Origin: an uncultured Collinsella sp.
Lineage (GTDB): Bacteria > Actinomycetota > Coriobacteriia > Coriobacteriales > Coriobacteriaceae
Direction: 5' to 3'
Length of the DNA: 9,036 nucleotides
NCBI GenBank assembly: GCA_902463875.1
Contig: CABQHR010000062.1
Coordinates: 1 to 9,036 of the forward strand
This document shows positions 3,751 through 8,584 of the stretch, piece after piece. The position numbers and the translations under genes are program-made. The notes under the pieces were generated by a model, which saw nothing but the letters and a program-made list of their open reading frames with translations, was not told the origin of the DNA and searched no databases. Numbering within the stretch: the first letter of the stretch is position 1; each line of letters starts with the position of its first letter.

Positions 3751-3777
3751 CGCACCCGCAAGGAGCGGGCGTGTTTT
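3751..3777 (+). terminator. Terminator-like hairpin in the leader of the 140-aa gene
   Basis: CCCGC (3755-3759) pairs with GCGGG (3765-3769) over the loop AAGGA, extended outward with one mismatch by 3751-3753 and 3771-3773, and followed by TTTT (3774-3777). It lies 95 bp before the ATG of the 140-aa gene and could act as an attenuator. If it terminates only transcripts from the left it would simply be a second terminator. Confidence 0.35.
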
Positions 3778-3785
3778 ATCCAGAG

Positions 3786-3823
3786 TCGGGGTAGAGAGTT
3801 GGCTCCACGATCCCGACGCCAAC
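3786..3823 (+). promoter_or_regulatory. Possible H-type pseudoknot in leader of the 140-aa gene
   Basis: TCGGGG (3786-3791) can pair with TCCCGA (3811-3816), ending in a G-T wobble. GTTGGC (3798-3803), inside that loop, can pair with GCCAAC (3818-3823) just past the first helix. Both six-pair helices can coexist as an H-type pseudoknot. A second GCCAAC at 3847-3852, near the ribosome binding site of the next gene, offers an alternative partner. I do not match it to a known riboswitch class. Confidence 0.3.
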
Positions 3824-3871
3824 CGGCCAAGAGGCACGGTGGCCCTGCCAACATCGATGAAAGGGGTCCAT

Positions 3872-4294
3872 ATGGACAATTTCTCTGTGCGCAGCGAGCG
3901 TAACTTCCACAACCTGATCGTCAAGCCAAAACGCATGCATCTTCTGGACAAGCCGAGCGGCTACACCTCGGCTTTGGTGAAGAACGGCCTCTCCCACCAG
4001 ATGCGCTTTACCATACAGAAGCTCGAGGAAGAGCTCCGTGCTGCTGGCAACCCACATGTTCTGCAGATCAAGCTGCTCGGAGACGACTCGCGCGAACCAT
4101 CCAACTGGAAGCTCTTCGCCGGCGGCGCATGCATCGCGAACGGTTCAGGAGAATTTGCCCGTGAATGCTTCTGCGAGGGAGCCGAGGCGTTCCTGGACCT
4201 GTGCCGCGACGCCGTCGACGCGGCCGAGCTGTGCCAGTGGAGCCAAAGGGAGTACGAGCTGCTGAACGCGGCACGCGGGATTGCGATGGTGTAG
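3872..4294 (+). CDS. Orphan 140-aa protein of unknown function
   Basis: This 140-aa soluble protein is not recognised. It has a basic N-terminal third (NLIVKPKRMHLLDKPSGYTS, residues 14-33), a predicted helix QMRFTIQKLEEELRAAG (43-59), a strand HVLQIKLLGD (62-71), and a C-terminal helical part with three cysteines (Cys100, Cys111, Cys120; CFCEGAEAFLDLCRDAVD). No signal peptide or membrane segment is evident. The ATG at 3872 is chosen because AAAGGGG lies five bases upstream; the open frame extends further left through the terminator hairpin but without a credible start. It sits alone between a terminator and a block of short repeats, so it is a monocistronic cargo-like gene. A small regulatory or phage-related protein is possible, but no function can be assigned. 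Confidence 0.6.
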   Translation: MDNFSVRSERNFHNLIVKPKRMHLLDKPSGYTSALVKNGLSHQMRFTIQKLEEELRAAGNPHVLQIKLLGDDSREPSNWKLFAGGACIANGSGEFARECFCEGAEAFLDLCRDAVDAAELCQWSQREYELLNAARGIAMV

Positions 4295-4469: not shown

Positions 4470-4628
4470 GCCCGACAGGAACTGATCGAAGAACAAAAAG
4501 ACATCGAGCAAGTCGCCAATACGCTCATTGCGCCTCGCAAAGAGATGGGCAAGCACGGCGTCATCTTGAGCTATGGCGATGATGGCACGGAATTGCAGCC
4601 AGATTGCCCGGACCTATTCGTCACCTGA
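4470..4628 (+). pseudogene. Start-less C-terminal coding remnant (52 aa)
   Basis: From the stop TGA at 4467 the frame stays open for 52 codons to TGA 4626-4628. The translation looks protein-like, with ELIEEQKDIEQVANTLIAPR followed by MGKHGVILSYGDDGTELQ and ending in FVT. Third-position GC is clearly elevated and second positions are AT-rich. There is no good start codon or ribosome binding site (the only Met is at codon 26), so it reads as the 3' end of a gene whose 5' part was lost by deletion or insertion. Its last 15 bases overlap the stop end of the convergent 787-aa gene. I do not recognise the family; a chance open frame is the alternative. Confidence 0.35.
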
Positions 4629-6977
4629 CACCAACAAGCTGTTGAGCGGCTCGCCCTCACCGGCGGCACTAAGGCGCCTCTGCATCTTCTCAATCTGTTT
4701 AAGTGTTGAAGACAAATACTTGAGACCCTTCTTCAGTTGCTTAAGCAACTTGCCATCCTTACGATTTCCTTTTCCGTTCTCCTTCTCGACATCCTCTTCA
4801 ATGCCAGCAATGCTGCGCCGCACGGCCTCGGCTGCTTTCCGCACCAAAATGGCCCCCTCATGCGGGCAGTGGTCAGTTGCCACATCAAGAAAAGCGAGAA
4901 GCCTTGAACATTCAACAAGCACGAACTGAGCATAGTCCTCCCCCATCGACGCCGCCAGGGCGACCCCACCAGAGCCCAAAAGGCCAAGCGCAGCGCCGCC
5001 GCCCGTAATCAAGGCGGTGCCGTCGGCCATGCCCATGCCGCCGGCGGCCAAGGCACCGCCGCCGGCGGCAGCAAGGCTTGCATTAACAAGTGCTGCTCCG
5101 TGGAGGCCAACAAACGAGCCTCCGAAAATGCCAACAGCAATATTCGGAGCGAACACTGCGGCCGCTCCTCCTGTGCCTACAGCCGCCACCACGGCAATGG
5201 CACCGCCCACCAAGACCTTTGGCAATGTACCTGAAAGCTCACGGGTACGCGCCCCGCAATGCTTCTCAAGGGAATATATGGCGTCCAGATCAACCGCGTC
5301 TTGTCTCCTAGGAAATTCGTCTTTAACCCAAGACCCACTCTCCTTCAAACCTTTGTATTCCTTCTCCTCTTCATCTCCCAACTGCGAATAGGGGCGAAAC
5401 TCAACCAACTCCTGTGCAACCAGCAGGGCGCGCACCTTACCGCCTCGCTGCCGCGAAATAGTCTCAAGGGCTCCGTACGCATCTTCCTCGCTCAAAAAGT
5501 AGCCGTCTGCATCAATGCCCAGGCCATCCGCAACCGAATCCTGCCACGCGCGGGACCAGCTTCTCTTTCGCCCTTTGCGCACTTCGTTCTTCTCGTTCCT
5601 GCAATCGTACTTGACGGCGGCCAGTTTCAGCGAAAAGGCAACCCTCGTCGCCTCTCCATCAAGGCTATAAAATTGGAAGCCATCGAAGACGTCCTGGCGG
5701 CGTCCGCTGCGCTCGGACCAAGCCTCGGACACTTCCTCCGCCATATAGTCCCAGTCGGCATGGAGGACAAACGCAAAGCGCCCAACCCCGACGTAGTTGA
5801 TTCGCAAGAAAAGCTTCTGGGCGAAAACGACCTTGCTCCCCCTGCATTCGATACCCGCCCTGACCGCCGCTGTCGCTAGATTCGCCAGAACGAACGAAGT
5901 GCTCGAAACCGTGACCATGCGAGTGAGGGCCCTACTGTTATAGGGCATAAAATGCGAAGCCTTGAGCTTGTGCAAGCCAGAGACCTTGCTCACTTCATAA
6001 CGCTCTAGCTCGGCCTTGAGCCTTGAGAGCATATAGAGACAGCGAACGATAACCTCGTTGGCCACAACTGCTAGCACCTGGCTTAAAGCCTGATCGAGAA
6101 GACCGACCTCCGTCCGAAGGTCAAAGCGAATGGGCTTGCCATCCTCGGTTTTGAGTGCCGTTCCGTTAAACAGCTTTGAGATCCATTGCTGAATACGAAT
6201 ATCCTCGCCCTTATAGGCAACCTGCGCGTCTTGAAAAACAGGCAGAGAGGAAAGCTCCTTTAGCAGGGACAGTACGATACCGGGAATACCCGTCCCCTTA
6301 CCGGGATTGGAACTAGACCCCGCCATGTCGCTCACGAGATGCATCGCCCAGAACAGAGTGCCGAACGCAATCTTCTCTGGAACGTTCCTGCCTATAAGCG
6401 GGCAGTCGGGATCGAAGACGACGGCAGGCAGGTCAAAGGCGACAAACCGGCCGGCCGTATCAGTGCCATAGCCTTTGCCCGTGAATTGCGAGAGGATCGA
6501 GCACGCAAGGCCAACCAAACTCGGGTGGTGCGAGAAATCCCGCAGATGATGTTGGAGTCCGCCGCCAAACTCAGCGGTCAGCTTGTCCGCGGCAAGAGGA
6601 AACTCTTTCTCCAGAAAGCGGATAGCATCTTCCAGAGTGGCATCTGCCTTTGTCATGCCCGCGGACTTGGCAATTATAAGAACGAAGTTGCCGACCTTCT
6701 CGTCGCCCCAGGCTTTAGCACTCTCGAGGTTGAAGTCTTTTTGCCACAGAACATTTAACGCGCCCGTGAGAAGCCCACTAACGGCTGCAAGTTCATAATC
6801 GAGCTTCGTAGCCTTTTCAGCCTGAGAGTCAAAATCATAGAGCAGTTCCTCCCCATCGGGAGCGTCCTTAAAAACAAGCAGCGCAGCGCTACCATTCAGC
6901 GGCACAGATGTGACTTTGGGCAGTTGAAGCGTGGCGTGAATTATCTCGCCGCCAGTAAAAACAAGTTCGTCTGCCAT
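4614..6977 (-). CDS. Large unrecognised protein with His motif and Gly/Ala-rich hydrophobic region
   Basis: This 787-aa protein belongs to no family I can name. A His-rich motif HHLRDFSHHPS (143-153) and the segment FWAMHLVSDMAGSS (209-222) could together bind a metal, recalling helical metal-dependent hydrolases, but this is inference. Residues about 290-330 and 355-380 are helical and partly hydrophobic. A basic stretch (RKGRKRSWSRAW, 467-478) follows. Residues 585-676 are an almost uninterrupted Gly/Ala-rich hydrophobic region, like glycine-zipper membrane-inserting segments, and the C-terminus is a charged helix (720-768). The ATG is chosen because AGGAGG lies eight bases upstream; a TTG six codons earlier lacks a site. 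It lies 38 bp after a decayed gene on the same strand and has no visible terminator. A membrane-active effector or defence protein is a reasonable guess only. Confidence 0.7.
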   Translation of the reverse strand: MADELVFTGGEIIHATLQLPKVTSVPLNGSAALLVFKDAPDGEELLYDFDSQAEKATKLDYELAAVSGLLTGALNVLWQKDFNLESAKAWGDEKVGNFVLIIAKSAGMTKADATLEDAIRFLEKEFPLAADKLTAEFGGGLQHHLRDFSHHPSLVGLACSILSQFTGKGYGTDTAGRFVAFDLPAVVFDPDCPLIGRNVPEKIAFGTLFWAMHLVSDMAGSSSNPGKGTGIPGIVLSLLKELSSLPVFQDAQVAYKGEDIRIQQWISKLFNGTALKTEDGKPIRFDLRTEVGLLDQALSQVLAVVANEVIVRCLYMLSRLKAELERYEVSKVSGLHKLKASHFMPYNSRALTRMVTVSSTSFVLANLATAAVRAGIECRGSKVVFAQKLFLRINYVGVGRFAFVLHADWDYMAEEVSEAWSERSGRRQDVFDGFQFYSLDGEATRVAFSLKLAAVKYDCRNEKNEVRKGRKRSWSRAWQDSVADGLGIDADGYFLSEEDAYGALETISRQRGGKVRALLVAQELVEFRPYSQLGDEEEKEYKGLKESGSWVKDEFPRRQDAVDLDAIYSLEKHCGARTRELSGTLPKVLVGGAIAVVAAVGTGGAAAVFAPNIAVGIFGGSFVGLHGAALVNASLAAAGGGALAAGGMGMADGTALITGGGAALGLLGSGGVALAASMGEDYAQFVLVECSRLLAFLDVATDHCPHEGAILVRKAAEAVRRSIAGIEEDVEKENGKGNRKDGKLLKQLKKGLKYLSSTLKQIEKMQRRLSAAGEGEPLNSLLVSGDE

Positions 6978-7015
6978 ATCGGCTTCCTCCTGCAAGCGCG
7001 TAAAATCAGATTGCC

Positions 7016-8234: not shown

Positions 8235-8248
8235 CGAACATATATTCG
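8235..8248. promoter_or_regulatory. SOS (LexA) box
   Basis: CGAACATATATTCG matches the Gram-positive/actinobacterial LexA operator (CGAAC-N4-GTTCG) at 9 of 10 fixed positions; only the first base of the right arm differs. It lies 90 bp upstream of the 41-aa gene and 154 bp upstream of the divergent exonuclease start, so LexA could repress either or both. No clear -35/-10 pair is assignable around it, although the box itself and the following TATTTATG are AT-rich as expected for a promoter. Confidence 0.55.
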
Positions 8249-8303
8249 TATTTATGGCTGCAGTTTGATAGACTGGTTATTGTTGGCGGCGGTTCCATGT
8301 GCC

Positions 8304-8338
8304 GGGCAGCGCCCTCCATGCGACGGGAGGTGATGCCC
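8304..8338 (+). promoter_or_regulatory. Hairpin sequestering the ribosome binding site of the 41-aa gene
   Basis: GGGCA (8304-8308) pairs with TGCCC (8334-8338) directly before the start ATG, and CCTCC (8313-8317) pairs with the ribosome binding site GGAGG (8326-8330); a 4x3 internal loop separates the helices and an 8-base loop closes them. In this fold the ribosome binding site is masked. GGGC (8304-8307) can alternatively pair with GCCC (8311-8314), which would free it. This is the type of leader that silences toxin mRNAs until processed. Confidence 0.45.
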
Positions 8339-8464
8339 ATGACCGATCTGACTGATTTTGTGAAGCTCCTGGCCGCTTTGGTCTCGCTCCTCACGGCGCT
8401 TATCGGACTTACCGAGGCACTCAAGCAGCGTACGAAGCATAAAAAGAGAGGTCGACGCCGCTAA
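8339..8464 (+). CDS. 41-aa membrane peptide, candidate SOS-induced type I toxin
   Basis: The peptide is MTDLTDFVKLLAALVSLLTA continuing as LIGLTEALKQ and ending in an eleven-residue tail with eight Arg/Lys. It has one amphipathic/hydrophobic helix (about residues 5-28) and a polybasic C-terminus, the layout of holin-like and type I toxin peptides that insert in the cytoplasmic membrane. The ATG at 8339 is chosen because GGGAGG lies eight bases upstream; ATG 8333 is in frame but too close. A long in-frame extension to 7538 crosses the exonuclease antisense and is a shadow. Upstream lie an SOS box and a hairpin masking the ribosome binding site; downstream an intrinsic terminator, so it is a self-contained unit. 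TisB of E. coli is the functional parallel, not a homologue. It could instead be a small phage holin. Confidence 0.65.
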   Translation: MTDLTDFVKLLAALVSLLTALIGLTEALKQRTKHKKRGRRR

Positions 8465-8488
8465 GGCGATGACCCCTTAATCCAAGCA

Positions 8489-8538
8489 ACGGCGCTGCCC
8501 AGCTCTTCACTACTTGGGCTGCCGTCGACCTTATTTTA
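8489..8538 (+). terminator. Intrinsic terminator of the 41-aa gene
   Basis: ACGGC (8489-8493) pairs with GCCGT (8521-8525) and GCCCA (8497-8501) with TGGGC (8515-8519), with a 3x1 internal loop between. The T-rich run TTATTTTA (8531-8538) follows after five bases. It begins 24 bp past the stop codon of the 41-aa gene on the same strand. Confidence 0.6.
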
Positions 8539-8584
8539 CCCACGGGCGCCGGGTTTACCAAATGGATTTTCGGTAAAGGAAGCA

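What the first reader, a model, noticed from the sequence alone, without database searches (positions are those of the whole stretch)
8235..8538. Self-contained SOS-box / hydrophobic peptide / terminator unit: candidate SOS-induced type I toxin
Within 300 bp there is a LexA box matching CGAAC-N4-GTTCG at 9 of 10 positions, a leader that masks the ribosome binding site, a 41-aa peptide with one hydrophobic helix and a polybasic tail, and an intrinsic terminator. In E. coli, TisB shows that SOS control plus a translationally silenced leader plus a small membrane peptide defines a toxin/persistence module. I know of no described equivalent in Coriobacteriia. The elements are seen; the toxin role is inferred.
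Basis: partly seen in the sequence, partly recalled or inferred. Interest (0 to 1): 0.72.

Follow-up and report, generated by a model that had tools for sequence, protein, structure and literature searches.

The report
SOS-controlled mirrored type I toxin module
In gut Collinsella bacteria a tiny gene sits behind a site that matches the DNA-damage repressor's boxes and is bracketed by mirror-image, promoter-like ends; it is predicted to make a small membrane toxin that a convergent antisense RNA likely silences until DNA damage would release it.

Summary
The 41-codon frame has 310 protein matches (E<=1). Of 30 distinct Collinsella copies with an intact leader, 22 carry the LexA-like box, each exactly 104 bases before the start codon and at one of two chromosomal settings. 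Eight lack it, three of these on circular plasmids. Divergent matches occur in 78 of 395 Coriobacteriales genomes; a phylum sample hit only genomes of that set. Most of the 40 representatives examined share a hidden Shine-Dalgarno site, a one-helix peptide, a leader complementary to the 3' end, and a -10-like site on the opposite strand beyond the 3' hairpin. The leader and 3' end covary. LexA control is predicted for chromosomal Collinsella copies and a few relatives elsewhere. Toxicity, the antisense RNA, LexA binding and induction are untested. The '3' terminator' is more likely the antisense promoter and 5' hairpin.

The parts
8235..8248 (+). LexA-box-like palindrome CGAACATATATTCG, 104 nt before the ATG, overlapping the predicted -35
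   Evidence: same position in all 22 Collinsella copies that have it, of 30 with an intact leader; CGAAC-N4-GTTCG-type boxes precede Collinsella lexA (three) and recA
8245..8250 (+). predicted sense -35 (TTCGTA), weak match
   Evidence: read from the sequence; inferred
8269..8274 (+). predicted sense -10 (TAGACT; most Collinsella relatives TGNTAGAAT, extended -10)
   Evidence: sense -10-like hexamer in 30 of 40 representatives, 12.1 expected
8282..8292 (+). leader arm 1 of the 5'-3' pairing (pairs with 8519-8529)
   Evidence: cognate duplex test
8304..8313 (+). leader arm 2 of the 5'-3' pairing (GGGCAGCGCC, pairs with 8491-8500; its first five bases can alternatively pair with TGCCC 8334-8338)
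   Evidence: covariation in 30 distinct element pairs
8312..8317 (+). anti-Shine-Dalgarno CCCTCC
   Evidence: fold; accessibility
8325..8332 (+). strong Shine-Dalgarno GGGAGGTG, predicted sequestered
8339..8464 (+). 41-codon ORF for the predicted membrane toxin, with stop
8450..8474 (.). hairpin spanning the stop codon; predicted minus-strand terminator, followed on the minus strand by TCTCTTTTT
   Evidence: 14 cells changed on both sides (0 of 500 shuffles as high), six pairs with such a change (27 of 500 as high); 86.5% of its cells pair; strongest form in L067; not called by the scan
8491..8500 (+). 3' partner of leader arm 2 (GGCGCTGCCC)
8519..8529 (+). 3' partner of leader arm 1 (CTGCCGTCGAC)
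8438..8526 (-). predicted antisense (antitoxin) RNA, about 89 nt, two hairpins, -37 kcal/mol
   Evidence: no transcript data
8533..8538 (-). predicted antisense -10 (TAAAAT; relatives GGGTANAAT or TGCTATAAT)
8556..8561 (-). predicted antisense -35 (TTGGTA, 17-bp spacer)

Best explanation
The 300-bp unit is likely a type I toxin-antitoxin module: a 41-codon gene predicted to make a membrane toxin stands behind a LexA-like box, is predicted to be closed at its ribosome site by a leader hairpin, and faces a predicted convergent antisense RNA that would act as antitoxin at its 3' end. Shown by sequence and comparison: the box, the conserved frame, the complementarity of the Shine-Dalgarno region, the 5'-3' complementarity with covariation, and the conserved -10-like sites on both strands. 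Inferred: LexA represses the sense promoter. The mRNA folds shut through the leader hairpin and its own 3' end. A constitutive antisense RNA pairs with the last ~90 nt and leads to RNase III decay. DNA damage lifts LexA, and mRNA outruns antisense. The peptide then inserts in the membrane and slows or arrests growth. Box-less plasmid copies would serve plasmid maintenance instead. The unusual feature is the mirror design: both predicted RNAs start with nearly the same hairpin, so the mRNA's leader mimics the antitoxin's 5' end and would compete with it for the mRNA's 3' end.
For: 310 protein matches at E<=1, 120 listed. LexA box at -104 in 22 of 30 copies with an intact leader, 7 beside the exonuclease gene and 15 beside a HAD-hydrolase gene; 8 box-less copies beside neither. 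Box-type sites before Collinsella lexA (three), recA and an MgsA/RarA-type gene. Architecture kept in divergent genera; 78 of 395 order genomes hit. Leader-3' duplex beats all 100 mononucleotide shuffles in 30 of 40 representatives, median z -4.4; for the window 0 of 1000 shuffles reach it. Helix-2 elements located independently of pairing pair in 271 of 300 cells; 5000 shuffles reach at most 266. Shine-Dalgarno unpaired median 0.12 in full mRNA, 0.03 in the leader, against 0.40 in 19 controls. Minus-strand -10 in 34 of 40, 15.2 expected. Stop-codon hairpin covariation. Hydrophobic segment in 39 of 40. Plasmid copies. The 40 include near-duplicates.
Against: No transcript, toxicity or LexA binding was tested. 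Most relatives outside Collinsella lack a box: of all 40 representatives 3 have a site with at most 1 mismatch and 5 with 2, three of these five at the right place. CGAACNNNNRTTCG is rarer than its reversed control in the three genomes, so a box is not shown by enrichment but by position and conservation. Mismatches in the inverted repeat are not biased to G-U on the sense strand (52 against 40, P=0.25, four decayed copies left out; 41 against 27, P=0.11 in 26 thinned), so selection for shared 5' hairpins or DNA-level symmetry is not separated from mRNA 5'-3' pairing. Ten of 40 duplexes do not beat all shuffles, and the cognate partner ranks first in only 13 of 40. Trimming the 3' end does not open the ribosome site in silico; it closes it slightly (median unpaired 0.12 to 0.02), unlike the hok and aapA models. 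The scan called no plus-strand terminator and did not call the stop-codon hairpin on either strand. Two of the five covariation measures are weak (27 and 445 of 500 shuffles as high), and the antisense 5' hairpin hardly varies there, so it is no test. In 6 of 40 representatives no minus-strand -10 met the rule.
Confidence: 0.72

Rival explanations
1. The gene is an SOS-induced small membrane regulator, for example a cell-division inhibitor (works like SidA or YneA; recalled), not a toxin with an RNA antitoxin.
For: LexA box, small single-helix peptide, conserved frame.
Against: A checkpoint protein does not explain box-less plasmid copies, several copies in one genome (up to four matches; G003 and G012 have three intact ones), the conserved minus-strand promoter-like unit, or an IS110 element lodged repeatedly in the tail codons.
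Confidence: 0.13
2. The inverted repeat is a DNA-level feature, a mobile or gene-converting cassette bounded by near-identical ends; the antisense RNA and the 5'-3' pairing are by-products.
For: The repeat runs through both -10 sites in several copies; no significant strand bias of wobble mismatches (52 vs 40); copies at several loci and on plasmids.
Against: The LexA box of 22 copies lies outside the repeat yet at one fixed distance; these copies sit at only two gene settings, 7 and 15 of 22; the stop-codon hairpin inside also covaries. No transposase was looked for specifically.
Confidence: 0.08
3. Type I module as proposed, but the minus-strand unit is not expressed; the mRNA is controlled by its own structure and LexA only.
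For: No transcript data; the scan does not call the predicted minus-strand terminator.
Against: -10-like hexamers at a nearly fixed distance in 34 of 40 representatives, with the variable third base expected of a -10. In the divergent L067 the 3' element matches the window at 48 of 58 positions while the peptide is 39% identical.
Confidence: 0.07

Closest known systems
txpA/RatA, bsrG/SR4, yonT/SR6 (Bacillus subtilis); CD2517.1-RCd8 type (Clostridioides difficile)
   Same: Small hydrophobic peptide; convergent antisense RNA overlapping the toxin mRNA's 3' end, about 75 nt of overlap for RatA, 100-nt SR6 (PMC8167048, PMC4147584, PMC6563280, passages; PMC5848175, abstract start in listing).
   Different: The peptides here have no convincing match to any Pfam or NCBIfam family (best DUF6223, E 0.0024 in 1 of 13 members); LexA box in a subset; leader complementary to the mRNA's own 3' end and nearly identical to the antisense 5' hairpin. 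No direct comparison with these toxins' sequences was run.
tisB/IstR-1 and dinQ/AgrB (Escherichia coli)
   Same: LexA-controlled single-helix toxin whose primary mRNA is translationally closed (PMC5668327, passages).
   Different: Their antitoxin genes are divergent and non-overlapping; here convergent and 3'-overlapping. One A3 member hits Pfam TisB_toxin at E=0.095, not significant.
hok/Sok and aapA/IsoA
   Same: 5'-3' long-distance interaction closes the toxin mRNA (PMC6733600, passages).
   Different: Sok and IsoA act on the 5' part of the mRNA (recalled in part); here the predicted antisense covers the 3' end, and the folding model gives no opening on 3' trimming.
Fst/RNAII (par of pAD1)
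   Same: Convergent sense and antisense genes on a plasmid (PMC8167048, passage); repeats link the leader to the 3' side (recalled).
   Different: Fst repeats are direct, so RNAII is complementary to the leader (recalled); here they are inverted, so the antisense has the leader's own sequence.

Membership tests
type I toxin-antitoxin system | small, usually hydrophobic peptide gene, frame conserved | tested here: met
type I toxin-antitoxin system | RNA antitoxin antisense to the toxin mRNA | tested here: inconclusive
   conserved minus-strand -10-like site and covarying hairpin; no transcript data
type I toxin-antitoxin system | translational gating of the toxin mRNA | tested here: inconclusive
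   in silico only: Shine-Dalgarno median unpaired 0.12 (full) and 0.03 (leader) over 40 representatives against 0.40 in 19 controls
type I toxin-antitoxin system | peptide toxic when expressed without the RNA | not testable with these tools
   needs an experiment
LexA (SOS) regulon | box of the organism's own LexA type in the promoter, conserved in orthologues | tested here: met
   22 of 30 Collinsella copies with intact leader, all at -104, both chromosomal settings; lexA and recA boxes of the same type; 8 of 30, beside neither setting, lack it
LexA (SOS) regulon | LexA binds and transcript rises after DNA damage | not testable with these tools
   needs EMSA and RNA-seq
TisB family (Pfam PF13939) | profile match | tested here: not met
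   none for the window; best E 0.095 in 1 of 13 members
tisB/dinQ type layout | divergent, non-overlapping antitoxin gene | tested here: inconclusive
   a convergent, 3'-overlapping unit is predicted instead; a trans-encoded antitoxin elsewhere was not searched for
txpA/RatA-like layout | convergent antisense RNA overlapping the mRNA 3' end | tested here: inconclusive
   predicted only
hok/aapA-type 5'-3' closure | conserved leader-3' complementarity | tested here: met
   not separated from DNA-level symmetry
hok/aapA-type 5'-3' closure | 3' trimming opens the ribosome site | tested here: not met
   in silico median unpaired 0.12 full, 0.02 trimmed

The most novel reading that the evidence does not exclude
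An order-wide family of mirror-built type I modules in Coriobacteriales. Two convergent promoters inside one inverted repeat start the toxin mRNA and its antitoxin RNA with the same 5' hairpin, so the mRNA leader is a built-in mimic of the antitoxin that closes the mRNA on its own 3' end. Chromosomal Collinsella copies have been put under LexA as a DNA-damage switch, while plasmid copies without the box act as addiction modules, and an RNA-guided IS110 element uses the toxin's tail codons as its landing site.
Probability: 0.5. Interest if true: 0.78.

Novelty: new variant of a known kind. Interest (0 to 1): 0.67.

Why it matters
In the rows shown by my library searches no type I module was described for Coriobacteriia (most lists were capped and most subscription papers are not held), and the SOS-inducible type I systems named in the passage read are from E. 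coli. If true, human gut bacteria carry up to at least three intact modules of this kind per genome, DNA-damaging drugs could switch some of them on, and the mirrored repeat gives a new testable way to wire an antitoxin. The box-bearing and box-less copies are a natural experiment in how an addiction module becomes a stress switch.

Tried and rejected
Upstream start (63-aa form): an in-frame stop lies in the last 60 nt of the leader in 16 of 30 copies (14 of 22 with box, 2 of 8 without), not in the window; with the Shine-Dalgarno spacing, ATG 8339 is taken. Orphan antitoxin reading of the 5'-truncated relics: rejected for now, because in 9 relics the ORF remnant is more conserved (98.6%) than the antisense unit (92.0%). 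Strand-bias test to prove RNA pairing: not significant. 3'-trimming switch: not supported. Known families: none in Pfam, NCBIfam or PHROGs at a convincing E-value. Viral contigs: 27 pattern stretches, none a relative. Phage records: only a short match in one Staphylococcus phage, present as two records. RNA-model hits of 24-32 bits are read as chance: the four inspected (L126, L128, L135, L136) look like an unrelated coding gene.

Full report
What is there. The box CGAACATATATTCG lies at 8235-8248, one mismatch from CGAAC-N4-GTTCG. It overlaps a weak predicted -35; a -10 (TAGACT, TGNTAGAAT in most Collinsella relatives) is at 8269-8274, so transcription should start near 8281 (inferred). The 41-codon frame runs 8339-8464 behind a Shine-Dalgarno site, GGGAGGTG, that pairs with CCCTCC just upstream. 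Pfam, NCBIfam and PHROGs give no convincing family for the peptide.

Relatives. A protein search gave 310 matches (E<=1; 120 listed); the few names shown are Collinsella. Scans gave 19 loci in reference genomes, all Collinsella, and four plasmid-collection records, all C. aerofaciens. One of these four is a 900-kb record with chromosomal-type neighbours; the other three are 23-30 kb circular plasmids. In the genus, 20 of 43 genomes hit by protein, with 1-4 matches each. The RNA model of the 3' element hit 26 of 43 at E<=0.01; by my count 22 of these have a best hit above 40 bits and 4 are weak, read as chance.

Copies. 81 hits collapse to 44 distinct copies. 30 have an intact leader and ribosome site. 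22 of the 30 carry the box, each at -104: 7 beside the exonuclease gene, as in the window, and 15 beside a HAD-hydrolase gene. Of these 22, three are cut in the tail by an insert and one lacks a recognised start. The other 8 have no box and lie beside neither gene; three are on circular plasmids, the replicon of the rest is not known. The remaining 14 of 44 are 5'-truncated relics, decayed copies or the divergent L067. Among 23 distinct intact coding sequences pN/pS is 0.43.

LexA type. In Collinsella genome G003 lexA has three boxes (AGAACGAATGTTCG, CGAACAGTTGTTCC, CGAACATTTGTTTG) and recA has CGAACAGCCGTTCG; an MgsA/RarA-type ATPase gene also lies behind such a box. The pattern CGAACNNNNRTTCG occurs at 24 distinct places in three genomes (my count), five of them at copies of this gene; the reversed control pattern is more frequent, so the pattern is not enriched genome-wide. 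In six other Coriobacteriales genomes recA carries a site with at most two mismatches at the same distance in six of six, three of them with one mismatch. lexA boxes were found in four of six; in the other two my motif search did not find the frame.

Order-wide family. With the Collinsella alignment 32 of 395 order genomes hit; with a broader 13-row alignment, 78 of 395 at E<=0.01. In 396 genomes spread over the phylum 7 hit at E<=0.001, all of them in the order set. I took 36 of the matches listed (not all), dropped one without a recognised start, and added five Collinsella copies: 40 representatives, some near-duplicates. Genus names are not available for these genomes; ten of the 40 are from the Collinsella genus set.

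Common architecture. (a) The ribosome site is hidden: median unpaired 0.12 in full mRNA and 0.03 in the leader, against 0.40 for 19 annotated genes with a looser site definition. (b) The leader pairs with the 3' region: 30 of 40 cognate pairs beat all 100 mononucleotide shuffles, median z -4.4; the cognate partner ranks first of 40 in 13. Ten of 40 do not beat all shuffles, including four that look decayed (G267, G110, G110b, G015b). For helix 2, with both arms located without reference to pairing, 271 of 300 cells pair, and 5000 shuffles reach at most 266; position 5 shows A-U, C-G and G-C, position 7 C-G, A-U and U-A. (c) A hairpin spans the stop codon, with 14 doubly changed cells in 16 Collinsella sequences (0 of 500 shuffles as high); the number of doubly changed pairs (6; 27 of 500) and of pair types (13; 445 of 500) is less telling. 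(d) On the minus strand, just beyond the 3' hairpin, 34 of 40 have a -10-like hexamer (15.2 expected); on the sense side 30 of 40 (12.1 expected). In several copies (for example G144, L003) the inverted repeat runs through both -10 sites.

Reading. The two ends of the gene are mirror images: a promoter-like site followed by nearly the same hairpin. The minus-strand RNA, predicted 8526 to 8438 (89 nt, two hairpins, -37 kcal/mol), would pair perfectly with the mRNA's 3' end, as in txpA/RatA and bsrG/SR4 (PMC8167048 and PMC4147584, passages). The U-run after its predicted terminator hairpin comes from the Lys/Arg codons of the toxin tail. Because the leader has nearly the antisense RNA's sequence, the mRNA can also close on itself, as in hok and aapA (PMC6733600, passages).

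SOS control. Box-bearing chromosomal copies should be LexA-repressed; box-less copies should not. Outside the Collinsella set, the 30 representatives hold one site with one mismatch (G317) and three with two mismatches at -101 to -110 (G215, G226, G268); two other two-mismatch sites lie elsewhere (G097, G288) and 24 have three or more. A further copy without a recognised start, in G311, has CGAACATATATTCG. So LexA control is recurrent but not universal.

Limits. Nothing here shows a transcript, LexA binding or toxicity. The wobble test did not separate RNA pairing from DNA-level symmetry (52 against 40, P=0.25). Folding predicts no opening on 3' trimming, so the activation step is unknown. Controls for hidden sites are only 19 genes from four loci.

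Novelty. Parts are known singly: LexA-controlled toxins in E. coli (PMC5668327, passages; PMC6563280, passage), convergent 3' antisense in Gram-positives, 5'-3' closure in hok and aapA. The combination, the mirrored 5' ends and the host group appear new. The search for 'type I toxin-antitoxin' with 'Collinsella' gave one paper, whose listed abstract start concerns type II systems; searches listed no Coriobacteriia type I system among the rows shown. Most subscription papers are not in the library.

Noticed in passing
L197, about 926-2507; L196; also L006, L012, L129-L132: An IS110-family element (369-aa transposase, Pfam Transposase_20 and DEDD_Tnp_IS110), about 1.6 kb, sits in the A-rich tail codons of at least five copies of this gene in four genomes, and near them in a sixth, a relic (L197) (halves at contig ends counted once). 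IS110 elements are guided by bridge RNAs (PMC11208160, listing), so this gene family may be its programmed target.
   Followed up: partly
window 3773-3863 (+): SAM riboswitch (RF00162, 45.1 bits, gathering score 44.4) ending 8 nt before an in-frame ATG at 3872 of a 140-aa frame; the piece from 3875 has no Pfam family.
   Followed up: partly
L007:4099, L008:4099, L023:2989, L065, L066, L085, L086, L088, L089: A 5'-truncated relic of the module without the usual promoter, leader or start is kept in nine copies compared; its ORF remnant is 98.6% identical on average, more than its flanks. Reason unknown.
   Followed up: partly
L124 (G015:C12): Two module copies in tandem about 300 bp apart; the second has lost the leader and the 5'-3' pairing.
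   Followed up: no
window 4614-6995 (-): A 793-aa frame with no Pfam or NCBIfam match at E<=1.
   Followed up: no
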